Shown: positions 24,829 to 63,387 of the stretch, in pieces
Numbering within the stretch: position 1 is the first letter of the stretch
Layout: each line of letters begins with the position of its first letter
Made by a program: the position numbers and the translations under genes
Source of the DNA: Vigna angularis
Taxonomy: Eukaryota; Streptophyta; Magnoliopsida; Fabales; Fabaceae
Assembly: GCF_016808095.1 (NCBI RefSeq)
Contig: NC_068975.1
Coordinates: 31,457,001-31,521,000 of the forward strand
Direction: 5' to 3'
Length of the DNA stretch: 64,000 nucleotides
Notes under the pieces: model-generated
What the model was told of the DNA's origin: nothing
The model's database searches: none
Seen by the model: the letters and a program-made list of their open reading frames with translations, nothing else

Positions 24829-25189
24829 CATTAAATTCAAATACAACTTAAAAAGAGATTAGCGAAAGTAGTACACGAGGCTTAGTAATAAATGTGAGTA
24901 CATAGTGTTTGGAACAGAATTAGTCTCTAAATAGTAATGATGAACTAATCTTATAAATACAACTACAGATAAAGATAAAAGGTACTTTTTTTAATATCTA
25001 ATAATATTTGTTTGAGACTGTTAAACAATAAAATACTTATTTAAGTATTAGAATATCATTTGTAAGTATCTTTCAGATACTTATTTAAATATATTTTGTC
25101 CAAGTATATGGTTTAATAGGATTATCTCGATCTTGTAAAAATATTTTGGCAAGATGATACAATAATATTATTAGACCACATAGTGAAAA
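24829..25189 (+). repeat. Diverged ~550-bp tandem repeat, unit 1 left part
   Basis: It begins ACATTAAATTC and shares a series of landmarks in the same order with DNA at 35152-37335: TAGTAATAAATGTGA, then CTTATAAATACAA, TTTAATATCTAAT, and AACAATAAA...ACTTATTTAAG. The unit is interrupted at 25189 by the LTR retrotransposon and resumes at 35152. Confidence 0.6.
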
Positions 25190-28100
25190 TGTAAGGACCA
25201 TGATTTTAAGAGTAGTGGGGACACGGTGGTCACCCACCCTTTTTCATTTCAGGGGAGCAACATGCCACACACAGAGCTCACATTCATGTGAGAGCATAGT
25301 AATATGCCACACCCGTGAACATTGTTATAGTTCACATGCACACAGTATATTTTACTATTATCTTCATGGGTGAACAATTAAATTGGAAAGCTGCACACAT
25401 GAAAAACAACACGTAAAGGATAGCTCCTGGGAACAACTCATTCCTTTCATCCAACACTTCAATGTTTCTTCTCTTTGGCTAGCGGAACCAGCAGATGCCC
25501 ACGGTCCAGCTGGGAGGCGTCACCACCATGGCCTCCACACAACGTCCAACATCCAGGAGCCAGCAGCCACACCCAAAGCAGTAGAAGTTCACGGTGCTGC
25601 AGTTACTGACTGGAAGGGAGAATACGCACGTTACCCTTGAGGAGAAGAAGTGCCCAGCAGCCACCATCTTCATCATCCAATAACCACTTTCACGCAACCA
25701 GCAGAGAAGCCTTGAACCATCCAACACGGTGCAGCAGCGGCAGGAGTTGCAGTCAGTCACGGCCTCTCGTCCATCAACACCAGTAATCCGGTATCGCCCA
25801 GCATGCAGCCACCACATTCACGTTGATTCCAGAGAAGATAAAAAGGAGGTACTGGGTTCTCAAATGGGGAAGAGTCTTTGCTACCTTGCTGCCATTTTTG
25901 TGAGAAAAGGAGAAGTTCAAAGCTTGGTGGAATTGCTTGGAGCTGCAAGTTTTGGAAGAGTTAGACTCAAAGAATTCACAAAGGAAGTCTTCAAGAGGTA
26001 AGGAGTGCTAGATTTTGTTTTGATTAGTTAACCTTACTGTTTTTGTAGAAATCTAAAAGCTTTAGAGTTAAAAATGGAGGTTTTCTGGTTTTCTGGAAAA
26101 CCTGCGATTCTGCAGAATCTGCAGAATCGCGTTCGTCCAATTTGGTTTCAATTTGGACGTTCGTCCAAAACTTGACAAATGGAACGTTCGTCCACGTTGT
26201 TTTGAGCGCTCGTCTCTTTTTCTCTGTCGAGCGCTCGTCCAAACAGTGTTGTCGAGCGTTCGTCCTTAAGTTACATGTTGAGCGTTCGTTCTTAAATATT
26301 CTGAACGTTCGTCCTAACAGTATATGACCAAATATAGGTGGGTTTCTGAGCGTTCGTTCATATATAGTGGATTAACGAGCGTTGGTGATAAGGATTTGAG
26401 TAGAGAGCGTCTGTGTGCGCCTGTGAACGTTCGTTCATTCCAGGTAAGGGAAGCTTATTTAATTTAACTGGTATGATGTATGCTATGTGAACGTTCGTTA
26501 TTTATTTGTAAGAAAATAAGGCATGATGTATGAATGAATGAGCGTTCGTCATTTTACTGTTGGATGCTTCTATGATTGGCTATGTGAACGTTCGTTATTT
26601 GATGGTATGTGTATAATGCATGATATTTGATTTATTGAACTGCATGAACGTTCGTTTTCTCGGTGAAATGAGATGTATGAATTTACATGACATGGATTGT
26701 ATAAAATGTGGAAGTTGATGTTGATATGAACGTGTGAAATCTATGAGTATGAATGACAAAAGATGAACTGGAATACAAAAGAAATTGACTAAGAAACTTT
26801 CCCTATGAACATAATCGTTCGTTGCTGAACGGTCCTTGACCGTTCGGTTTTCCTGATAAAGTAGTAGAAGTGGGATTCGTTCATTTGGAAGGATCCCTTG
26901 TTGAGGACGAGCGTCCTCGTGTCTAAAGGGTATGCTTGAGCGTTCGGCCAAGCATTGTGTTTGGTATTCTTTGATAAAAGCCCTTCTGTTGTATGCACAT
27001 ATGTAATAGTGTATTTTACCGTTCGTACTTCTTCGATATCAAAGTCTATTATTTTAAGATTATTAACGTTCGGTCTCACACCAGCGTTCGTCCTAAAGGG
27101 GCGTTCGGTTCTATACTGAACGTCCGTCCTAATTGGTATTTAATCTTATACTGAACGTTCGTTCTGTTTAGTGTTCGTTCATAATGAGTGCTCGCTCAAA
27201 ATGGTGTTCGGTCTTATACCGAACGCTCGCTCAAATTGGGGCTCGGTATCACACTGAGCGTTCGTCCTAATAGTGCTCGGTTTCGAATTGAGCGTTCGTC
27301 CAAATAGTGCTCGGTCTCCAACTGAGCGTTCGTCCTAATAGTGCTCGGTTTTGAATTGAGCGTTCGTCCGAATAGTGCTCGGTATCATTTTGAGCGCTCG
27401 TCCTCATTTTCCACAAAATAGCGTTCGTTATTTGATACGAACGAGCGTCTTTGGTCTCGCTTTTAGCGTTCGTTTCTTTGATCCGAACGAGCGTCTTTTT
27501 GTCTCGCAAAACAGTGTTCGTTCTCGTTCCCCTTATGATGGTACGTTCGGTATTTAAATGATGAATAGTTCATGATGAACAGTAAATGATGAATAGTAAA
27601 ATGACAAATATTATATGATGAAAATGATTATGGAATGATGACTAGTGAATTATGAATATATGATCAAAAGTGAATGATGAACAGTATTTGCGATGATATG
27701 AAAGTTATGAATATTGAACGAGCGTTCCAGGCAGGAACGACTCATGGTTGAATGTTGAAAGTTGTAAAGTATGACTGTGGTTAGCTAATGCTGGCTTGGT
27801 CTATCCTGATATTCCGTGATACTCATCTTCACGTAGAGGAGGGTAGTTCATGTGTGGGAATGGCAGGAGGTCCTTAGTCCATAAGTTAACATGGGCGACG
27901 TAAGAACGGACTAACCTCGAGGGGCAGCTGTTGAGTGTATTCCAGTTACTACACCACTCGGGTGCAAAGACGCCTGTAGCTACACAGTTCATACAGTCCG
28001 GACAGTCAGTCGTGTTGAGTTTTATTTTGTACATGCGTTAAATTATGTGATGTATGATGAATGTGTACGTTGATATGTATGTGTGAAATGAACTGTTTGC

Positions 28101-28562
28101 TAGAAATTATATGTTGATGCATGAGTTAAATTACGTAAGCTTACCCTTTCGTTTTCCTTGTGTTGTCAATTGTCCTTGTACGTCCGTCTTGTCATTGCGA
28201 TGATCATCCGTGTGGATGTGAGCAGAGGGAGACGAGTGTTTGGAAGAAATGCTGAATGAAGAGAACCTGGTTGATGTTGAAGTGAAGACCGAACAGTGAG
28301 ACCGCTCGGCCAGTAGTGTGATTGTTGAATTGAGTGGTCGTCCGACCATCCTTTGTTTTCGTTTAAGTTTATTTCGACCGTTCGGTAATTGTACTGTGTA
28401 AACCGTTCGGTCAGGTTTTTATTTGTGCGTTCGACTTCGGATTGTGATTCGTGTTGTAAGGTGTACGGCTTGGCTTTTGTTTTTAGCGAAAAACTGTACT
28501 GAATTATTATTAAATGTGACTTTCTGAATTTATAGTTATGACTGTATTTTTGGGATGTCACA
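25190..28562 (+). repeat. 5' long terminal repeat, 3373 bp
   Basis: It starts TGTAAGGACCATG and ends GGGATGTCACA. The 26.1-27.5 kb part holds about 30 exact CGTTCG cores, mostly GAGCGTTCGTCC or GAACGTTCGTT, plus variants such as GAGCGCTCGTCC. At 27196-27400 they form a ~34-bp periodic array alternating with AGTGCTCGGT. Small open frames inside are noncoding by appearance. The sequence is identical to the 3' copy except for one base I noticed (C in CAGCTG near 27930, T in the 3' copy). Confidence 0.95.
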
Positions 28563-28566
28563 TTAG

Positions 28567-28578
28567 TGGTATCAGAGC
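28567..28578 (+). other. Primer binding site, complementary to initiator tRNA-Met
   Basis: TGGTATCAGAGC begins 4 bases after the 5' LTR terminal CA. This is the standard plant iMet primer site for minus-strand DNA synthesis and fixes the element's orientation as plus. Confidence 0.93.
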
Positions 28579-28713
28579 AGTTTTGTTCTTTTAAGGACAT
28601 TGTAGGTTGTGAGTACACCATGCTTGTTGTGTTGTGTGCTCAACGTTCGTTTATTGAGTATTTTAAGCTCTTTGAACTTAACTAACGATCGTTTTCTCTG
28701 CCTGAGAGAACAA

Positions 28714-29415
28714 ATGGTGCCAAGACCATTTCCTCAACCTATCAATCTTGAGACGCTTGAACAGCAGAGCGCTGCTTTGGTACATCTGAACACAGTCACA
28801 TTGCAAAGTTTGGAGGTCGCACGGGCAAACTTTGAAGCTACCCAAAGACAGCTGATGGAGATCATAGGAATCACTAGGGACATTATCAGAACGTTTATTT
28901 CCTCTAGAAATCAATGAACCGAGTTGAGTTTAGAGTGTTTCCGCCAACATCATCCAGCTAAGTTCACTGAGAGGTGTCTCCCTCAGGAGGTGGAAAGAAC
29001 TCAAGTATTAGAAAAGAATGTGACGGAATTGGAACAGCACAAGGGGCAATAATAACAGACAAAAAGAGGAGTCATATCTTTAAGGAACAATGATAATCTA
29101 AGGAGGACACCTTATGATCGTTCAGTACTACCTTCTGTTCTGGTAGGTGTCAATCAAAATTTTTGGTGACTGTCGGTCGGTCTGGACAGAAAGAGACCGT
29201 AAAATGTTTTGAGTGTGGGGGACAACACTTTCGATCAACGTGTTCCCAGTTGTTAGGAGTAAAGTCAGGTATTCATTGTGGGAGGAACGAAGACTTAAAA
29301 CGTAAGTGTAATATGGGAGAATGAACGGCCAGACGGATAGGACAACTCGAAAGCATGAGGGCATGGAAGTCATGTCGGGAATGGATTGGTTGACTATCAA
29401 CCGTATTCTTCTTTG
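28714..29415 (+). pseudogene. Degenerate gag-protease remnant
   Basis: An open frame from ATG 28714 to 28917 reads MVPRPFPQPINLETLEQ and continues as a helical gag N-terminus. After a frame change, FRQHHPAKF and CLPQEVERTQVLEKNV appear with sequence missing between them. A damaged zinc knuckle (CFECGGQHFRSTC) lies near 29205-29243; its spacing is one residue short of CX2CX4HX4C. GMDWLT with a following INRILL (about 29376-29414) matches the end of the gypsy aspartic protease, and a stop follows. The catalytic D-S/T-G is not seen. Internal deletions and frameshifts make it nonfunctional. Confidence 0.75.
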
Positions 29416-29780
29416 AGTGGTCGAAAGTAGTTGGTGTTTTTTTTTGACCCAGATGGTTTGGAGCTGATCGCGAACAAGGAAGTCTTGACGGATGTTAGTA
29501 ATGGAGCCGTGTATTTTGTAGTATTAATTCAATGGAAATTGTGATATACGAGTTCGGGTATCTCAAATTCAATTATGCTACTTTATTGGTTATATTCTCT
29601 GACGCGGTTAGTGGTATAATATGTGTAGATACTTGAAGGATATAATTTTACGCACTCTTGTTTCATTTTTGGAACATTATAAGAATGTGTTAGCTTAAGA
29701 GTATAAAGAGGAGAGTTATATTCGAAGAAAGTAAATCTCATTTTCAGAAATAAGACAAATACCATATAATTCATTAATTT
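29416..29780 (+). other. Residual retrotransposon interior, left of the captured gene
   Basis: The first ~130 bases still read like the segment after protease (DPDGLELIANKEVLTDVSNG). Beyond about 29560 resemblance fades and DNA becomes AT-rich. The left edge of the captured segment lies somewhere in 29560-29790. Confidence 0.4.
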
Positions 29781-30022
29781 AGACCTTTAAGGCCATGGAG
29801 ACTACACATATTTTTCAAACCTCATAAGTTATAACCAGATACCATAATATTCGTGTGCAAATGGTACCACACACTTTAAACGAACAAACATAAAAAGTAA
29901 AACAGATAAATATTACAGTCCATAAAATACGCAAATAAAGCAAATAAACAAAAGCAAATAAAAGATGTTCGGGGTTCGATCAATGTTGATCGTTAATATT
30001 ACAGACCATCAAAATTAAAATT

Positions 30023-30574
30023 TCAGTGGAAAAATTCTCGAGCCGGTTGTGGTGGCCTAAGGGAGAGCTCCGTCGAGGGAGCTCTGGTTCGGAATGCGAG
30101 AGGCATGGGTTGAGGGATTTGTCGTTCGTCCTTGTCATCGTCGATGATGATCGGAACGGGGAACAAGTTCAGCAACCTCGGCGCCTTCATAATTACCCAG
30201 CCATATTCTTCAAATAATATTTTGTGTCAAAAATAGAAGGGGAAAAATAAAATAAAATAAAATAAATAAAAATGAAAATAGTGGTAATTAGGGTTCTTAC
30301 CATACATGTACAGCGGCAGCTGAGAAAATACGGTGCCAGTGGGGTCTAATTCCGCTTGCCAGCGCTTGACCCGGTTACCATGATTGTTGAACCAGCAGTG
30401 TACATTATATTCACTGACTTCTCCGAAGGCCCTGAGTCGAGATGCAATCTCGACGACTTGGGCTCTGCTGGGATGTGTGACCCCGTGGTTGAAGATATTG
30501 GTCATCATTTTGACCTGATCATCAGTAGGTTTCCACCGCTGACTGGTGTACCTCTCCATCTCCATATCACTCAT
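30023..30574 (-). CDS. WUSCHEL-related homeobox (WOX) protein carried inside the retrotransposon
   Basis: Two coding exons, 30301-30574 and 30023-30207, encode 152 residues; the donor is strong (G|GTAAGA) and the acceptor GAAG|AA is weak. Residues ~12-73 form a WOX homeodomain: QRWKPTDDQVKMMTNIF, then SRLRAFGEVSEYNVHCWFNN. The extra residues in loop and turn are typical of WOX. W61, F62 and N64 keep the recognition-helix core, but the HKAR that normally follows is HGNR. Residues 103-109, LLNLFPV, match the WUS box (TLxLFP) with Thr replaced. Residues 137-143 (TELSLRP) resemble an EAR repression motif. The first AUG of the spliced mRNA is at 30574, after an in-frame stop in exon 1. WUS-box WOX proteins are nuclear regulators of stem cells and organ growth. 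The strand is opposite to the retrotransposon. I see no stop or frameshift; whether it is expressed is unknown. Confidence 0.82.
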
Positions 30575-30591
30575 CTTCCTCTCAGAGTATT

Positions 30592-31380
30592 TCTAAAGCA
30601 TAATGAAATAATAAAATAAAATAAAAAGGGCAAAAACAGAACAAAATATTCAGTGTTTTCTTTAATTGTTTTGTTCTCTTTTAGGTTCTTTTGTCCGGTC
30701 AATCATTGTTGTTTCAGTGTCCAGTCTCTGATCTGTTTCACGGTCCTCGCAAAGGTTCCTAAACGGATCTATGTCAATTTGTCCATGTCCGGTTCATACA
30801 AATAAATTCCTCTTTTTAAGTTTTCTGTTTTTATGGGGTACGTGGCGTTGTTCTACCCGATTGTCTCTGTCATACCCTCAATCGAGGGGAGATTAACGTC
30901 TGGTTTCCAGCCGATATACCCCTTATCTTAGTTAATGCAGTGTGTTCTTAGTTTTAGTTAATAAAAGGAAAATAGAAGAAGAAGAAAGCAAATGCAGGAG
31001 CAGAAGTAAAATAACAAAACGGAAAATAAAGATGAAAGCAGAATAAAATTGCGGGAAATAAAAGCTCAGAAAAGAAAAAGAAAAGTACATGAAAGGAAGC
31101 AGAAAGAAGAAAGGGAAGAAAAGAAGCGAGAAGTAAAGAAAGAGGAGAAGCTGGGTAAAGGAAAAGAAGAGATAAGAGAAAAGAAATACTTACTCGAGGC
31201 GGAGCAAAGCCTTGGAACTTGCAGATTTGAAACTTGCCGGAAAACTCTCCGATCTACCACACTCAGTCGTTCAGATCTCGCAAAGTTTTCACTCTCAGAA
31301 CCCTCGATGCTCAGATCTCACTCTCTCACTCTCTCTCTCTCTCTCTCTATCACGTGCTCTGAAAATCTCAGCGTTTCGAA
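30592..31380 (-). other. Predicted noncoding first exon and first intron of the WOX gene
   Basis: On the minus strand a leader exon runs from about 31380 to 31194. It carries a (GA)n tract (31322-31350) and ends CTCGA|GTAAGT, a near-consensus donor. An acceptor CTTTAG sits at 30593-30598, so exon 2 begins at 30592, 18 bases before the start codon. The intron is about 600 bp and purine-rich on the plus strand (31049-31190). This layout is typical of a plant gene, not of retrotransposon interior. Confidence 0.55.
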
Positions 31381-31402
31381 GTGTCGCCTAACGCGGCTAA
31401 CG

Positions 31403-31413
31403 CCTTACTTATA
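31403..31413 (-). promoter_or_regulatory. TATA box of the captured WOX gene
   Basis: The minus strand reads TATAAGTAAGG about 30 bases upstream of the proposed leader start. It is the only TATA-like site at the right distance and supports capture of the gene with its own promoter. Confidence 0.45.
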
Positions 31414-31479
31414 GCCAAAGAACCTTACTGTGCTCACAGTTCCGGTCATGCATAACCGGAATCTTCAATAGTAGCGGTT

Positions 31480-31765
31480 AAAAAAAAAAAAATTTAATAA
31501 TAAATAAATAATAATAATTGTAATATTGTATTATGAGATTTTTTGGTGTGAGATATGTGATATGTATGTTGACCCAGAACTCTCTCTTTGTACGAAGAGT
31601 GAGAGTTGTCCTGATAAGCTCTTTAAGCGGTGGGAACTGCTGGATAAGTTTAGTATACGAGTTGTAGGAGGCAACTCTACCTAAGAATTTGAGGACAAGA
31701 TGAGAGAGCTGTATCTCAACTGGTTTTAGAAAACTTAATTTTCGAGGACGAAAATTTTTGTTGTT
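31480..31765 (+). other. Residual retrotransposon 3' interior
   Basis: After an A-rich tract at about 31480-31492 the DNA resumes typical gypsy 3' noncoding wording. It includes TTTGAGGACAAGATG and TTTTCGAGGACGAAAATTT, and runs to the polypurine tract. No open frame. Confidence 0.5.
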
Positions 31766-31773
31766 GGGGAGAA
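31766..31773 (+). other. Polypurine tract
   Basis: GGGGAGAA directly abuts the TG of the 3' LTR. It is the plus-strand primer site expected for a plant Ty3/gypsy element. Confidence 0.88.
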
Positions 31774-34700
31774 TGTAAGGACCATGATTTTAAGAGTAGT
31801 GGGGACACGGTGGTCACCCACCCTTTTTCATTTCAGGGGAGCAACATGCCACACACAGAGCTCACATTCATGTGAGAGCATAGTAATATGCCACACCCGT
31901 GAACATTGTTATAGTTCACATGCACACAGTATATTTTACTATTATCTTCATGGGTGAACAATTAAATTGGAAAGCTGCACACATGAAAAACAACACGTAA
32001 AGGATAGCTCCTGGGAACAACTCATTCCTTTCATCCAACACTTCAATGTTTCTTCTCTTTGGCTAGCGGAACCAGCAGATGCCCACGGTCCAGCTGGGAG
32101 GCGTCACCACCATGGCCTCCACACAACGTCCAACATCCAGGAGCCAGCAGCCACACCCAAAGCAGTAGAAGTTCACGGTGCTGCAGTTACTGACTGGAAG
32201 GGAGAATACGCACGTTACCCTTGAGGAGAAGAAGTGCCCAGCAGCCACCATCTTCATCATCCAATAACCACTTTCACGCAACCAGCAGAGAAGCCTTGAA
32301 CCATCCAACACGGTGCAGCAGCGGCAGGAGTTGCAGTCAGTCACGGCCTCTCGTCCATCAACACCAGTAATCCGGTATCGCCCAGCATGCAGCCACCACA
32401 TTCACGTTGATTCCAGAGAAGATAAAAAGGAGGTACTGGGTTCTCAAATGGGGAAGAGTCTTTGCTACCTTGCTGCCATTTTTGTGAGAAAAGGAGAAGT
32501 TCAAAGCTTGGTGGAATTGCTTGGAGCTGCAAGTTTTGGAAGAGTTAGACTCAAAGAATTCACAAAGGAAGTCTTCAAGAGGTAAGGAGTGCTAGATTTT
32601 GTTTTGATTAGTTAACCTTACTGTTTTTGTAGAAATCTAAAAGCTTTAGAGTTAAAAATGGAGGTTTTCTGGTTTTCTGGAAAACCTGCGATTCTGCAGA
32701 ATCTGCAGAATCGCGTTCGTCCAATTTGGTTTCAATTTGGACGTTCGTCCAAAACTTGACAAATGGAACGTTCGTCCACGTTGTTTTGAGCGCTCGTCTC
32801 TTTTTCTCTGTCGAGCGCTCGTCCAAACAGTGTTGTCGAGCGTTCGTCCTTAAGTTACATGTTGAGCGTTCGTTCTTAAATATTCTGAACGTTCGTCCTA
32901 ACAGTATATGACCAAATATAGGTGGGTTTCTGAGCGTTCGTTCATATATAGTGGATTAACGAGCGTTGGTGATAAGGATTTGAGTAGAGAGCGTCTGTGT
33001 GCGCCTGTGAACGTTCGTTCATTCCAGGTAAGGGAAGCTTATTTAATTTAACTGGTATGATGTATGCTATGTGAACGTTCGTTATTTATTTGTAAGAAAA
33101 TAAGGCATGATGTATGAATGAATGAGCGTTCGTCATTTTACTGTTGGATGCTTCTATGATTGGCTATGTGAACGTTCGTTATTTGATGGTATGTGTATAA
33201 TGCATGATATTTGATTTATTGAACTGCATGAACGTTCGTTTTCTCGGTGAAATGAGATGTATGAATTTACATGACATGGATTGTATAAAATGTGGAAGTT
33301 GATGTTGATATGAACGTGTGAAATCTATGAGTATGAATGACAAAAGATGAACTGGAATACAAAAGAAATTGACTAAGAAACTTTCCCTATGAACATAATC
33401 GTTCGTTGCTGAACGGTCCTTGACCGTTCGGTTTTCCTGATAAAGTAGTAGAAGTGGGATTCGTTCATTTGGAAGGATCCCTTGTTGAGGACGAGCGTCC
33501 TCGTGTCTAAAGGGTATGCTTGAGCGTTCGGCCAAGCATTGTGTTTGGTATTCTTTGATAAAAGCCCTTCTGTTGTATGCACATATGTAATAGTGTATTT
33601 TACCGTTCGTACTTCTTCGATATCAAAGTCTATTATTTTAAGATTATTAACGTTCGGTCTCACACCAGCGTTCGTCCTAAAGGGGCGTTCGGTTCTATAC
33701 TGAACGTCCGTCCTAATTGGTATTTAATCTTATACTGAACGTTCGTTCTGTTTAGTGTTCGTTCATAATGAGTGCTCGCTCAAAATGGTGTTCGGTCTTA
33801 TACCGAACGCTCGCTCAAATTGGGGCTCGGTATCACACTGAGCGTTCGTCCTAATAGTGCTCGGTTTCGAATTGAGCGTTCGTCCAAATAGTGCTCGGTC
33901 TCCAACTGAGCGTTCGTCCTAATAGTGCTCGGTTTTGAATTGAGCGTTCGTCCGAATAGTGCTCGGTATCATTTTGAGCGCTCGTCCTCATTTTCCACAA
34001 AATAGCGTTCGTTATTTGATACGAACGAGCGTCTTTGGTCTCGCTTTTAGCGTTCGTTTCTTTGATCCGAACGAGCGTCTTTTTGTCTCGCAAAACAGTG
34101 TTCGTTCTCGTTCCCCTTATGATGGTACGTTCGGTATTTAAATGATGAATAGTTCATGATGAACAGTAAATGATGAATAGTAAAATGACAAATATTATAT
34201 GATGAAAATGATTATGGAATGATGACTAGTGAATTATGAATATATGATCAAAAGTGAATGATGAACAGTATTTGCGATGATATGAAAGTTATGAATATTG
34301 AACGAGCGTTCCAGGCAGGAACGACTCATGGTTGAATGTTGAAAGTTGTAAAGTATGACTGTGGTTAGCTAATGCTGGCTTGGTCTATCCTGATATTCCG
34401 TGATACTCATCTTCACGTAGAGGAGGGTAGTTCATGTGTGGGAATGGCAGGAGGTCCTTAGTCCATAAGTTAACATGGGCGACGTAAGAACGGACTAACC
34501 TCGAGGGGCAGTTGTTGAGTGTATTCCAGTTACTACACCACTCGGGTGCAAAGACGCCTGTAGCTACACAGTTCATACAGTCCGGACAGTCAGTCGTGTT
34601 GAGTTTTATTTTGTACATGCGTTAAATTATGTGATGTATGATGAATGTGTACGTTGATATGTATGTGTGAAATGAACTGTTTGCTAGAAATTATATGTTG

Positions 34701-35146
34701 ATGCATGAGTTAAATTACGTAAGCTTACCCTTTCGTTTTCCTTGTGTTGTCAATTGTCCTTGTACGTCCGTCTTGTCATTGCGATGATCATCCGTGTGGA
34801 TGTGAGCAGAGGGAGACGAGTGTTTGGAAGAAATGCTGAATGAAGAGAACCTGGTTGATGTTGAAGTGAAGACCGAACAGTGAGACCGCTCGGCCAGTAG
34901 TGTGATTGTTGAATTGAGTGGTCGTCCGACCATCCTTTGTTTTCGTTTAAGTTTATTTCGACCGTTCGGTAATTGTACTGTGTAAACCGTTCGGTCAGGT
35001 TTTTATTTGTGCGTTCGACTTCGGATTGTGATTCGTGTTGTAAGGTGTACGGCTTGGCTTTTGTTTTTAGCGAAAAACTGTACTGAATTATTATTAAATG
35101 TGACTTTCTGAATTTATAGTTATGACTGTATTTTTGGGATGTCACA
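31774..35146 (+). repeat. 3' long terminal repeat, 3373 bp
   Basis: Same length and ends as the 5' LTR. The only difference I found is one C-to-T change near 34514. It is followed by the target duplication GAAAA. Confidence 0.95.
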
Positions 35147-35151
35147 GAAAA

Positions 35152-35335: not shown

Positions 35336-36506
35336 GGTTTAATATCTCTCTATTTTTGTTAGGTGTGTTCGATTTGGTCTCAGTTTTTTTTTCTGTTAAA
35401 TGTTGTCTTAAAAACTGTAATTTTTGTTCAATTTAGTCATTTTTGCAAACGACGTTTAAATCGTTAACGGCAGACAATCCAGGTGTGCACAAGACTAATG
35501 AGATGACATTTAACTTCTGCCACGTCATTATCTTCTTCAACCTTCAGCCCAAAATTAAGGTTCTGCTTTTGGGGAAAACCTTCCTACGCTTGCGCCGCGA
35601 GAAGAAGGAAAACGCTGCTCACGGTTTTGCTTCAATGGAGGATGATTTCACAAATTATGCTGCTCATGGTAGCATGAAGAAAACGAACCTAGTTGTGTAA
35701 GAAAGCACTCATGGTGGCCGGTGGAGGCAAGCAGCGGGTTTCTTTGATTTGGGATTTTTCTGGATTTCGTTGTGGTTCTCTGCAGGTTGGAGAAGATGAT
35801 GGCCCTAGAGCTTTGCGTGACGACAAAAAGGATTGTCGCGCTGACGATGAAGCTCTCGATTTGGATGATTCATGGCTGATGTGCGAGAATGAAGATTCGA
35901 ATGGAGTTTGAGATTAGGGTGGCTTGCGACATTGTTGACGGTGAAGACTTAGCGATTTAGGTGGTGTGATTCAACTTTCTTTGTTTCTGGGTGCTTGTGT
36001 TTGATTTGCAGGTACGAGATGCTGGCAATGACAGCTTGAGAAAATCCTGTGATGCGGAGGCGCGGAGGTGATCTGGGTAGCGTGGTGGCGTTAGGAGAGT
36101 TTTGTGATTTGGGGGAGATCGCGACTTTGATGGTGGTGGCCATGGAGGTTGCGTGTGATGGTTGTCATGGTTCTCTGCAGGTGCGGCTTCACGGTGACAT
36201 GATGACTTTGGACGAGGTTTGTAGTGGCGGTGGCGTTAGGGTTTGATGGCGGCGCTAGGGTAGGGTTTCAGTATTTGTTTGGGCAGAAGGATGAAGAAGA
36301 TGGTGACGTGGCAGTAATTAAATGTCATCTCATTAGTCTTGTGCACACATGGACTGTCTGTCGTTAACGATTTAAACGCCGTTTGCAAAAAGGACTAAAT
36401 TGAACAAAAATTATATTCTTTAGGACAACATTGAACAGAAAAAAAACAAACTGGAACCAAATCGAACACACCTAACGAAAATAGAGACCATCAGAGGTAT
36501 TAAGCC
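35336..36506. mobile_element. Mutator-like element, possible Pack-MULE (1171 bp)
   Basis: Terminal inverted repeats of about 195-204 bp (35336-35528 and 36303-36506) start GGTTTAATA on the left and GGCTTAATA on the right (minus strand). Shared blocks include TTAGGTGTGTTCGATTTGGT, TTGTTCAATTTAGTC, TTTAAATCGTTAACG and TGTGCACAAGACTAATGAG. Flanking 9-mers are TTAAATCTA (35327-35335) and TTAAATTTA (36507-36515), a target duplication with one mismatch. The 770-bp interior is far more GC-rich than its surroundings and looks like captured gene sequence. No transposase is present. Confidence 0.75.
35529..36302 (+). other. GC-rich interior of the MULE, putative captured host sequence
   Basis: Open frames here (for example ending FASMEDDFTNYAAHGSMKKTN before TAA near 35700) have coding-like composition but no domain I recognise. 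CTGCAGGT at 35783 and 36175 and TTTGCAGGT at 36006 look like intron acceptors, as if two or more exons were captured. Identity of the donor gene is unknown. Confidence 0.35.
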
Positions 36507-37340: not shown

Positions 37341-38360
37341 TACTTGGACCAACTAGAAAATAAAACTATCAATTTTGTATGAACCATATAAATAGATAAT
37401 TAAATCATAAATAATTAAAAACTTAGTACCGCCTATTAATACTATTAATCAAAATAAATAAGTAAGGTTAATTACGAAAATTACAATTATAATAAAAAAA
37501 TGAAAAGGTGAATTTCTTCAGTGTTCTTTTATAAGATACGCGAATAAATAAATCAATATTTTTAAAAATTCTTAAATTGTTTTTAATAGAGAATTTGATA
37601 TGTATAGAACGAAACAACTTTTTATATGAAATTAAAAAATATACAATTTTATTAAAATAATTAAATTGTTTAAAATTAGACAATGTTAAATTGTATCTTA
37701 ATTAAATATTTGTATTTTTTTTCATGTCAATTTTAGTTATGATTAGATATTTTTTTATTAATCTTTATAGAAATTATATTTATTTATTTAATTGGTTAGA
37801 ATCCTAATCATTGTAGAACACTTTTATATTTACTCAATAATTGCAAGTTTTATTGATGAATGTTAAAGATTGCATTTTAATAACATTAACATGTGAACTA
37901 AATGTTTTCAGTGACATTATAATTTTTATACTGATGAATACAATAACTATTTTTTACCAACGTATATTGTTTTTTGATAATAATTTGTTAAAATTTGTTT
38001 TTAATTTTAACAATGAAAAACTTTCATTGAATATTAATTAAGATTATTTTTTATTGATGTCAACCGAAAAAAAATTCAATCGATATTGATTGAATAGTCA
38101 ATAAAAAGAATCCCATTATCATTATTATTGGCATAAATAAATATGGTTAATATCACGAAAACATATTTCGAACAAAACAAAGATTCATTAAAATTAATTA
38201 AAAATTTATCAGCATAAATAATTATTAATGACATATTCCATTTTTGGTAGAATAATAAAAAAGTTCCAACCTTATAAAAACAAATTTAATTTTGCTTGCT
38301 TTTATTTCAACTGCAATATTGATTAAAGTAATTAAACATATAGTTAGTCTTTAGTAATGG

Positions 38361-38361
<1 letters not shown>
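37341..38361. other. AT-rich region with no gene
   Basis: Runs of A/T with short chance open frames only. I see nothing coding or structured. Confidence 0.6.

Positions 38362-38454
<93 letters not shown>
38362..38454. repeat. (TA)n microsatellite, left of the TIR element
   Basis: About 93 bp of uninterrupted alternating TA, ending exactly at the inverted-repeat element. Confidence 0.95.
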
Positions 38455-38455
<1 letters not shown>

Positions 38456-38458
<3 letters not shown>

Positions 38459-39700
38459 CTGCTAACGTGCGTACGTCTGTTTTTCAGTTGGTACGTTTTA
38501 GCAATGTGTACCGGGTTTTAATAGACAAAAATATCTTTATATATCATGGATTCTAAGTTTTAAGGTTAAGGGTATTTTAATAATTTTCATTTTCAAAACT
38601 TAAAAAAAAAAAAAAAGAAACCCCCAAACCCTTACTCACCTCTGTCATTCCTCTCAACCCTTTCTCTTTCATCTTTCTAACTCCAATCTTTTCTCTGTCT
38701 TTCTCATTCCTCTCAACCCTTTCTCTTTCATCTTTTTCAGTCCAATTTTTTCTCTGTCATCCCTACTGTAGCACCAATTGAAAAAATAAAAAATTTCTCT
38801 CAACCCTTTCTCTTTCATCATTCTCACTCCAATCTTTTCCCTGTCATCTCTACTGTAGCCCCGATTGAAAAAATCAAAAACACTTGCCGTTAAACAATCT
38901 TACAAAAAAAATGATTTTATAATGAGTTTTCATCTTATAATTTTTGTCTTATCTAATTTTATCCAATTTTTACAAGCATAAAGGAATTAGTAATTGACTT
39001 GGAAAAAATCAGAAATACTTGTTGTTAAACAATTTCTTACAAAAAATGATTTTATAATGAGTTTTTATTTTATAATTTTTGTCTTATCTAATTTTATCTA
39101 ATTTTCACAAGCATAATGACATCAAAGGAATTGGTAATTGGCTTGGAAAAAATCAGAAACACTCATTGTTAAGCAATTTCTTACAAAAAATGACTTTATA
39201 ATGAGTTTTCATTTTATAATTTTTGTCGTATATAATTTTATCTAATTTTCACAAGCATAATGACATCCAAAAGAATTGGTAATTGGCCTGGAGGGATGAT
39301 TCAACATATGCAGATGATGAGGGTTAGTGAAGATGGTGAAATTGAAGAGATCTTGAATGAACTTTTGCCTGAAGGTGAATATGTCAATGACTCAACTATT
39401 TACAAAGGCAAATTGTTTAAAGGCAGATGTTTCTGATTTTTTCAATTGGAACTACAGTAGGGATGACAGAGAAAAGGTTGGAGTGAGAGAGATGAAAGAG
39501 AAAGGATTGAGAGGAATGAGAGAGGTGAGTAAGGGTTTGGGGTTTTTTTTTTTTTAAGTTTTGAGAATGAAAATTATTAAAATACCCTTAACCTTAAAAC
39601 TTAGAATCCATGATATATAAGGGTATTTTTGTCTACTAAAATCCGGTACACATTACTAAAATGTACCGACTGAAAAACAGGCGTATGTGCGTTAGCAAAC

Positions 39701-39701
<1 letters not shown>
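38456..39701. mobile_element. 1.25-kb terminal-inverted-repeat element inserted in a (TA)n tract
   Basis: Arms of about 245 bp (38456-38700 and 39459-39701) start GGTCTGCTAACG and GGTTTGCTAACG. They share ATCATGGATTCTAAGTTTTA, AAGGTTAAGGGTATTTTAAT and CCCAAACCCTTACTCACCTC. (TA)n tracts flank both ends, so the element probably integrated into a microsatellite, as the rice Micron family does. The target duplication cannot be read inside TA repeats. The interior has no transposase and contains three tandem copies described separately. Confidence 0.75.
38867..39290 (+). repeat. Three ~135-145-bp tandem copies inside the TIR element
   Basis: Units start near 38867, 39002 and 39146 with GAAAAAATCA. 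Each contains TGATTTTATAATGAGTTTT (ACTTTATAATGAG in the third), TATAATTTTTGTC and CACAAGCATAATGACATC or variants. The last copy runs into a 57-codon open frame from about 39261 (MTSKRIGNWPGGM..., later EDGEIEEILNELLPEGEYV), which may be a captured exon; no family recognised. Confidence 0.65.

Positions 39702-39702
<1 letters not shown>

Positions 39703-39756
<54 letters not shown>
39703..39756. repeat. (TA)n microsatellite, right of the TIR element
   Basis: About 54 bp of alternating TA, the right flank of the insertion. Confidence 0.93.
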
Positions 39757-39759
<3 letters not shown>

Positions 39760-40101
39760 AGACATTAGGTGAGATTTTTATTAACAGGTCAAATATAGGA
39801 GATATTAAATTCATTAATATTTGGACAAACTAATCATCTGAGTTTTGACTCTTGAATATGAGACGCTTTCTTTTTCATTTGACTTTTGTCTTTTAAATAT
39901 ATTTTCAATGTTTACTATTTACGTTATTCAAGAAATTATTTATTTTAATCATTTTTATTTAAATTATAACAGTGGTATATTTTTCTTTCTCTATAGTTAA
40001 TATTATGAACTACCACACTAAATTTAACTATGAACTACCACACTAAATTTAGAAAAGGAGTGTACTAAATACATGTACAGTGTAATTTAAAACATGTAAA
40101 A

Positions 40102-55704: not shown

Positions 55705-63387
<7,683 letters not shown>

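What the first reader, a model, noticed from the sequence alone, without database searches (positions are those of the whole stretch)
29780..31480. An intact, intron-containing WUS-box WOX gene rides inside a very young LTR retrotransposon
Seen: a 152-residue ORF over two exons with WOX homeodomain, WUS-box-like LLNLFPV, EAR-like ELSL, a leader exon with strong donor, and a TATA box, all between the gag/protease remnant and the polypurine tract of a complete LTR element. Known: plant retroelements can capture host genes, but usually as fragments or spliced copies. Inference: an entire developmental regulator with promoter and introns has become mobile cargo. Each new copy could place a stem-cell-type transcription factor at a new locus.
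Basis: partly seen in the sequence, partly recalled or inferred. Interest (0 to 1): 0.93.

Follow-up and report, generated by a model that had tools for sequence, protein, structure and literature searches.

The report
Retrotransposon carrying an antisense homeobox gene
In what appears to be the azuki bean genome, a family of recently active jumping genes carries its own intact copy of a plant stem-cell-type regulatory gene, kept in working order by selection and swapped between different jumping-gene types; it is an unusual case where the host origin of such a passenger gene can be recognised.

Summary
The window contains a complete, very young LTR element (25190-35146, TSD GAAAA, LTRs differing at 1 of 3373 sites) that carries, antisense, a 152-codon two-exon WOX gene with TATA box, leader exon, homeodomain, WUS box and EAR motif. 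It is not a one-off capture or nested insertion. All 40 genomic places scored (of 513 candidates) match it. In all 10 further copies read at 20 kb it lies antisense in the same place with an intact frame; 7 of these have two LTRs and a perfect TSD. Coding changes are constrained (pN/pS 0.27 pooled over the nearest pairs, dN/dS about 0.1 at dS near 1; EAR lowest). In the 10 elements listed gag is degraded and no long pol frame is present, so they look non-autonomous. Two unalignable backbones share nearly identical WOX coding units, so the module has been exchanged by recombination. WUS box, terminal EAR and a phase-1 intron point to a WOX5/7-like donor; the homeodomain tree does not support this. 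LTR-borne WOX amplification is already in print for two other Vigna species. Layout, selection and module exchange appear to be the additions. Expression, function and the share of WOX-less copies are untested.

The parts
25185..25189 (.). target site duplication GAAAA (left)
25190..28562 (+). 5' LTR, TGT...ACA, 3373 bp
28567..28578 (+). primer binding site TGGTATCAGAGC (complementary to initiator tRNA-Met, recalled)
28609..29519 (+). degraded gag/protease-like remnant (N-terminal ORF 28609-28917, CCHC-like CFECGGQHFRSTC); gag nature recalled from motifs, no Pfam hit above cut-off on the window piece or on four pieces of related copies
30023..30208 (-). WOX exon 3 (coding part): WUS-box-like LLNLFPVP, EAR-like STELSLR, stop TGA
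30209..30301 (-). WOX intron 2, 93 nt, phase 1, donor GTAAGA, acceptor AG
30302..30592 (-). WOX exon 2: ATG at 30574, homeodomain (residues 12-71)
30593..31193 (-). WOX leader intron (donor GTAAGT conserved in 11 of 11 copies aligned; acceptor inferred)
31194..31380 (-). WOX untranslated leader exon (start about 31380, inferred from the TATA box)
31408..31416 (-). TATA box GGCTATAAG, present as GGCTATAAA or GGCTATAAG in 11 of 11 copies aligned
31744..31773 (+). 3' end of the internal region with purine-rich tract (GAGGACGAAAATTTTTGTTGTTGGGGAGAA)
31774..35146 (+). 3' LTR, 3373 bp; 22 forward and 1 reverse copies of CGTTCGT
35147..35151 (.). target site duplication GAAAA (right)

Best explanation
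The feature is an accessory gene of an LTR retrotransposon family. A WOX gene (most like WOX5/7 by gene layout) entered an LTR element antisense, where most of pol would lie, long enough ago for several diverged groups of the gene to exist and for relatives to occur in three Vigna species. Because it is antisense, its introns are not splice signals in the element's own genomic RNA, so the whole unit with promoter passes intact through reverse transcription (inference). The elements look non-autonomous and would be mobilised in trans by an autonomous relative that I did not find. The WOX unit is transcribed from its own promoter in each new copy (inferred from the conserved TATA box and splice sites), giving a short nuclear homeodomain repressor that keeps WUS-box and EAR motifs. 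Selection acts on the protein while it is carried, not only on rare host-adopted copies. The coding unit passes between element backbones, probably by template switching between co-packaged RNAs. The most likely benefit is to the element: the repressor lowers host silencing, or keeps cells in a dividing, undifferentiated state from which new insertions reach the germ line. That last step is inference without a test here.
For: Shown: LTR pair and perfect 5-bp TSD in the window element and in 7 of 10 other copies, WOX antisense at the same place in all 11. LTR-LTR differences 0-8 per 2.0-3.4 kb in 10 elements, so recent activity. Frame intact in 10 of 10 further copies read with 20 kb; two more copies, L002 and L003, are open over both exons. 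dN/dS medians 0.14 (217 pairs, dS 0.4-0.8) and 0.10 (93 pairs, dS 0.8-2) in 39 models. 18 disjoint nearest pairs of 37 sequences: pooled pN/pS 0.27, 0.22, 0.18 by distance class; by domain in 28 group-A sequences EAR 0.06, WUS box 0.13, homeodomain 0.17. TATA box and leader donor in 11 of 11. Module exchange: left internal region alignable over 0.00-0.04 between backbones while the coding unit is up to 99% identical; backbone I as one clade is rejected on the coding unit, p-AU 0.0076. Intron phase 1 about 20-25 codons after the homeodomain in WOX5a, WOX5b and element groups A, B, F, against phase 0 in WOX4b and WOX3. WUS base readers R38, N90 and R94 are kept, by my own reading of the rows, in the representatives of groups A, B, D, E, F (rows).
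Against: No transcript or protein evidence. The homeodomain tree places the element WOX clade beside host WOX9/11 (89/83, long branches), not beside WOX5; the window protein's nearest host homeodomains by identity are WOX13 (38%) and WUS and WOX2 (36%), WOX5b has 33%. No autonomous element found: the one gag-like place opened had no frame over 101 aa in 4 kb. The share of WOX-less copies is unknown: of 40 places matching the gag-like region, 8 (window included) lie beside a WOX match listed, and the other 32 are undecided because those lists are capped. A trans-acting protein is a shared good, so selection in every lineage needs a cis advantage that I cannot name. Copies were taken from best-scoring matches, which favours intact ones. 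Among the 12 closest pairs (dS up to 0.05) the median ratio is 0.55-0.62, and 2 of the 18 disjoint pairs are near 0.9. The canonical WUS site TTAATGG is absent in 9 of 10 LTRs. LTR context beyond group A was seen in one of two B flanks; one E and one F flank showed no such LTR start within 2 kb, C and D were not looked at.
Confidence: 0.6

Rival explanations
1. Passive cargo: the WOX unit does nothing for the element; it looks intact only because the copies are young or homogenised by conversion.
For: LTR pairs of the 10 elements measured are nearly identical; coding units are exchanged between backbones; the closest pairs show ratios of 0.55-0.62; 6 of 40 gene-only copies are broken.
Against: Constraint is strong between long-separated lineages, dN/dS about 0.10 at dS 0.8-2, and pooled pN/pS of the 9 nearest disjoint pairs is 0.27; the EAR and WUS box are the most constrained parts; gag in the 10 elements listed is degraded.
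Confidence: 0.12
2. Host-gene explanation: a few copies are adopted Vigna genes under selection, and elements repeatedly pick up sequence from them by recombination.
For: Some copies are annotated as WOX genes (P0053, P0067, P0072); one E and one F flank, and one of two B flanks, show no LTR start within 2 kb upstream.
Against: Several diverged groups are constrained; 8 of 11 copies read with 20 kb are LTR insertions with perfect TSDs. A syntenic LTR-free anchor copy was not looked for, since no other Vigna genome is held.
Confidence: 0.2
3. The useful product is antisense RNA or promoter activity (regulating the element's own transcript), not the protein.
For: Antisense layout and conserved promoter and leader donor; the review of antisense ORFs raises this for other elements.
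Against: Constraint is at the amino-acid level and strongest in EAR, WUS box and homeodomain; intron 2 length varies (78-111 nt, leaving out one aberrant model).
Confidence: 0.08
4. Later nested insertion or assembly artefact: the WOX segment entered this one element separately.
For: None found beyond the antisense orientation.
Against: 40 of 40 scored places match, same position in the 11 copies read, published LTR-borne WOX copies in two other Vigna species.
Confidence: 0.01

Closest known systems
LTR-borne WOX amplification in Vigna marina and V. riukiuensis (Naito, in meeting report PMC10714607; passages seen)
   Same: WOX genes mostly between identical LTRs with TSDs, many copies (over 1000 in V. 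riukiuensis)
   Different: The passage gives no orientation, gene structure, selection, donor or exchange between elements and does not name V. angularis. The preprint it cites is not held, so overlap cannot be excluded.
Antisense additional ORFs (aORF-3R) of plant LTR retrotransposons: Grande gene23, RIRE2, Retand ORF4, PvRetro13 ORF2 (PMC7264820, parts 1 and 2 of 3 read; PMC11963269, passages)
   Same: Antisense gene before the 3' LTR, present in most copies; own promoter in Grande; nuclear localisation or predicted DNA binding of some products
   Different: The review says no clear similarity to other proteins is described and argues against transduced genes; here the host family is recognisable and introns are kept. 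Those genes are described between pol and the 3' LTR; here no long pol frame is present.
AlkB (2-ODD) domain in Phalaenopsis Ty3/gypsy elements (PMC9289625, abstract and passages)
   Same: Host-type protein domain fixed in an LTR element lineage
   Different: Enzyme domain in 25-kb elements; a word search of the main text gave no homeobox, homeodomain, WOX or Vigna.
Host WOX5/7 genes (loci L104, L105; names assigned by me from recalled family signatures)
   Same: Short second exon with WUS box and C-terminal EAR (PPLDLRLSFM, PPLELRLSFL against PSTELSLRLSF in group B), phase-1 intron after the homeodomain
   Different: Homeodomain strongly diverged (WOX5b 33% to the window protein, 44-47% to representatives of groups D, E, F).

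Membership tests
LTR retrotransposon | Two LTRs with TG...CA ends and target site duplication | tested here: met
LTR retrotransposon | PBS next to the 5' LTR and purine-rich tract before the 3' LTR | tested here: met
   (PBS complementarity to tRNA-Met recalled)
LTR retrotransposon | gag and pol (autonomy) | tested here: not met
   internal regions of 3.0-3.8 kb without a long gag or pol frame in the 10 elements listed
Ty3/gypsy chromovirus, Tekay/Del-like | Recognisable gag/pol domains of that lineage | tested here: inconclusive
   no Pfam family above cut-off for four remnant pieces; lineage suggested only by recalled motifs
WOX protein, WUS clade | WOX-type homeodomain | tested here: met
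WOX protein, WUS clade | WUS box (TLxLFPxx; motif recalled) | tested here: met
   VTLDLFPIP fits exactly in group D; LLNLFPVP in the window has L for T
WOX protein, WUS clade | EAR-like motif at the C terminus | tested here: met
   STELSLR; lowest pN/pS of the seven parts measured, 0.06
WOX protein, WUS clade | Groups with WUS-clade homeodomains in a tree | tested here: not met
   separate clade, nearest to WOX9/11 at 89/83 with long branches, few columns
Antisense additional ORF (aORF-3R) of LTR elements | Antisense gene before the 3' LTR, kept in most copies of the family | tested here: inconclusive
   antisense before the 3' LTR in 11 of 11 copies read, but these were found through the WOX gene; share of WOX-less copies not measured (8 of 40 gag-region places lie beside a listed WOX match, 32 undecided)
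Antisense additional ORF (aORF-3R) of LTR elements | Transcription from its own promoter | not testable with these tools
   TATA box and leader donor conserved, no RNA data

The most novel reading that the evidence does not exclude
A retroelement has domesticated a host homeobox repressor as its own accessory gene: the WOX module is under selection as an element gene, outlives gag and pol, and circulates between otherwise unalignable non-autonomous LTR elements, which share it and borrow their replication proteins in trans. New insertions would then be able to act on stem-cell or silencing programmes of the plant to favour transmission of the element.
Probability: 0.4. Interest if true: 0.9.

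Novelty: new variant of a known kind. Interest (0 to 1): 0.72.

Why it matters
The origin and use of antisense accessory genes in plant LTR elements is an open question; the review read here says no clear relatives of their proteins are described and doubts that they are captured genes. This case has a recognisable host family, young and old copies, and defined motifs (homeodomain, WUS box, EAR), so origin and function become testable. It suggests selection on a host-derived transcription factor while it is carried by apparently non-autonomous elements. It also warns that WOX expansions reported in Vigna genomes may in part be elements rather than host genes.

Tried and rejected
Nested later insertion: rejected, other copies carry the segment at the same place. 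Canonical WUS sites in the LTRs: TTAATGG absent in 9 of 10 LTRs (3 copies in C2_7288500, equal to the highest of 200 shuffles), TTAATSS not above shuffles in any; TGAATGAA in 3 of 10 LTRs. Autonomous partner: one gag-like place (C8:4.28 Mb) opened for 4 kb, no frame over 101 aa; others could not be fetched. Full-length structure: mean pLDDT 57, homeodomain blocks about 73-84; Foldseek best hits are the STENOFOLIA and WUS homeodomains. Pfam on gag/pol remnants: nothing above cut-off. Rfam on the window: none.

Rows dropped or failed: L004, L007, L008 left out before as duplicates of full copies; L036 and L058 (frameshift, stop) were still in the 39 models and were dropped. L002, L003, L005, L006 had no model because I turned them the wrong way; one search shows them open over both exons. 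12 of 40 gene-only loci had no model: six of them are open (L041, L055, L060, L062, L063, L064), four broken (L032, L035, L059, L061), two undetermined (L042, L066). In one search, 455 of 741 pairs fall in the printed dS classes; the rest have dS of zero, saturated or above 2. Host WOX names (WOX1-13) are recalled signatures, not database labels. Intron phase was read for WOX5a/b, WOX4a/b, WUS and WOX3 only; the WOX4a and WUS models are unreliable.

Full report
What is there. The window lies in an unnamed 448-Mb genome. It is probably Vigna angularis: all 66 matches of the first protein search carry that name, and contig C8 has the same length (36286043) as a contig holding V. angularis protein P0021. 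At 25190-35146 there is a complete LTR element: LTRs of 3373 bp differing at one site, TG...CA ends, and the 5-bp duplication GAAAA on both sides. Its 3.2-kb internal region has a primer binding site, a degraded gag/protease-like remnant, a WOX gene in antisense orientation, and a purine-rich end. The gene has a TATA box, a leader exon with donor GTAAGT, a coding exon with the homeodomain and a second coding exon with a WUS-box-like and an EAR-like motif; the spliced frame is 152 codons. Pfam finds the homeodomain at E 5.6e-8; the closest solved structures by sequence are the WUSCHEL and STENOFOLIA homeodomains.

It is shared by many copies. A search of the genome with 30023-30600 scored 40 of 513 candidates, all matching at 88-100% identity. 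A search with a diverged relative (P0055) scored 150 of 1023 candidates, giving 255 matches. Both counts are lower bounds. I read 10 further copies with 20 kb each. All 10 hold the WOX gene antisense in the same place with an intact two-exon frame; 9 of 10 have an LTR pair, 7 of 10 a perfect 5-bp duplication (GGAAC, GATCA, ATCAA, CTATT, CCGTC, TATAC, ATTTA), 2 an LTR pair without a matching duplication at the ends I set, and one no clear pair. LTR pairs of the window and these 9 differ at 0-8 sites in 2.0-3.4 kb. In 40 gene-only stretches, chosen by me across the list, 32 are open over both coding exons, 6 are broken (L032, L035, L036, L058, L059, L061) and 2 undetermined (L042, L066). High-scoring matches favour intact copies. 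How many elements lack the gene is unknown: of 40 places matching the gag-like region (562 candidates), 8 including the window lie beside a WOX match; the other 32 are undecided because those lists are capped.

Selection. In 39 spliced models the median dN/dS is 0.55 and 0.62 in the 12 closest pairs (dS up to 0.05, few changes), 0.29 (16 pairs, dS 0.05-0.1), 0.19 (53, 0.1-0.2), 0.27 (64, 0.2-0.4), 0.14 (217, 0.4-0.8) and 0.10 (93, 0.8-2). In 18 disjoint nearest pairs of 37 sequences the pooled pN/pS is 0.27 (9 pairs), 0.22 (7) and 0.18 (2); with sites weighted for a transition bias of 3 it is 0.35, 0.28 and 0.23. Individual pairs range from 0 to 0.88. By part in 28 group-A sequences: EAR 0.06, WUS box 0.13, homeodomain, N-terminus and linker 0.17, middle 0.31, tail 0.30. 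So the protein is constrained while carried, with the reservation that the closest pairs look less constrained. In the 10 elements whose internal region I listed gag frames are broken and no long pol frame is present; possible pol-end remnants (recalled motif WEVEDAMKDLYPHLF) remain in two.

Exchange between backbones. The 11 copies fall into two backbones. Between PBS and the 3' end of WOX, backbone I (window, C8:31.62 Mb, C1:35.64, C4:13.91) aligns within itself at 90-99% and with backbone II (7 copies, 88-96% within) over only 0.00-0.04 of the length. Yet the WOX coding unit of the window is 98-99% identical to that of four backbone-II copies and only 89% to two of its own backbone. A tree of the coding unit rejects backbone I as one clade (p-AU 0.0076), while the tree of leader intron to promoter agrees with the backbone (92/99, not starred). 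The simplest reading is recombination inside the WOX unit, probably template switching between co-packaged RNAs; conversion between genomic copies is not excluded.

Relatives and donor. Three protein searches gave 66, 77 and 41 matches; by the names shown all are Vigna (angularis, radiata, umbellata) except one Rehmannia homeodomain protein. I sort them into groups A (window) to F; D is about 33-40% identical to A. Of two B-group upstream flanks read, one (L118) shows the same PPT and LTR start and the other (L115) does not; one E and one F flank do not within 2 kb. In a homeodomain tree with 19 host WOX homeodomains of the same genome the 18 element-type proteins are one clade (99/98), beside WOX9/11 with weaker support (89/83) and long branches. 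Gene layout argues instead for a WOX5/7-like donor: a phase-1 intron about 20-25 codons after the homeodomain in WOX5a, WOX5b and element groups A, B, F, against phase 0 in WOX4b and WOX3, followed by a short exon with WUS box and terminal EAR. I rate WOX5/7 at about one half.

Likely mechanism. Shown: TATA box and leader donor in 11 of 11 copies and conserved coding splice sites. The WUS structure paper names R38, Q89, N90 and R94 as base readers (passages); by my own reading of the rows the element proteins keep R38, N90 and R94 except in group C, and group A has Asn for Q89, so DNA binding is plausible with some change of preference. Inferred: antisense layout protects the introns; the protein enters the nucleus and recruits a co-repressor through EAR and WUS box; the benefit is to element transmission. 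Nothing here shows expression. The LTRs of both backbones hold 16-26 CGTTCGT copies (both strands counted, at most 1 reverse) in 9 of 10 elements and 3 in the tenth, against at most 3 in 200 shuffles, and 0 in 9.8 kb of window flank; whether the WOX protein binds them is an open idea. Canonical WUS sites are not enriched.

Against known work. A 2023 meeting report (passages) says WOX genes in V. marina and V. riukiuensis were amplified and mostly lie between identical LTRs with TSDs; a genome paper notes WOX expansion in V. reflexo-pilosa (passages). The basic phenomenon is therefore in print. In the listings of ten full-text searches I saw no title or abstract start describing the antisense layout, selection or module exchange; the cited preprint is not held. 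Antisense accessory genes are known in Grande, RIRE2, Retand and PvRetro13, but without recognised host origin. Hence new variant of a known kind.

Noticed in passing
window 3' LTR 31774-35146 and one LTR of each of 9 further copies: Dense, nearly always forward arrays of CGTTCGT (16-26 per LTR in 9 of 10 elements, 3 in the tenth), shared by two backbones whose LTRs align poorly; none in 9.8 kb of window flank. Could be an element enhancer.
   Followed up: partly
G000:C6:30866515-30867092 and C6:30873313-30873890 (L003, L002): Two WOX units nearly identical to the window's, 6.8 kb apart on the same chromosome: possibly two internal regions sharing one LTR.
   Followed up: no
G000:C9:22.90, C9:28.35, C10:23.36, C10:9.78, C5:12.79, C1:35.26, C11:22.87 Mb (L072, L073, L077-L081): WOX groups E and F; representatives have homeodomains 44-50% identical to host WOX5b/WOX2b. 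One E and one F upstream flank lacked the LTR start seen elsewhere, so their carrier is unknown and they may be close to the donor form.
   Followed up: partly
window 35347-36487 and 38355-39767: Two long inverted-repeat elements (arms 169 nt at 91% and 159 nt at 92% complementarity), the first about 200 bp from the LTR element; MITE- or hairpin-like.
   Followed up: no
window 55705-56334 (+): LysM receptor-like ectodomain (Pfam LysM_RLK 1.5e-17; LYK3/4/5 LysM2 7e-9).
   Followed up: partly
public protein names P0038, P0053, P0061, P0067, P0068, P0072, P0073: Element-type WOX proteins are named in databases as WUSCHEL-related homeobox 1, 2, 4, 4-like, 5-like and 8-like of Vigna, which can inflate WOX family counts.
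   Followed up: partly
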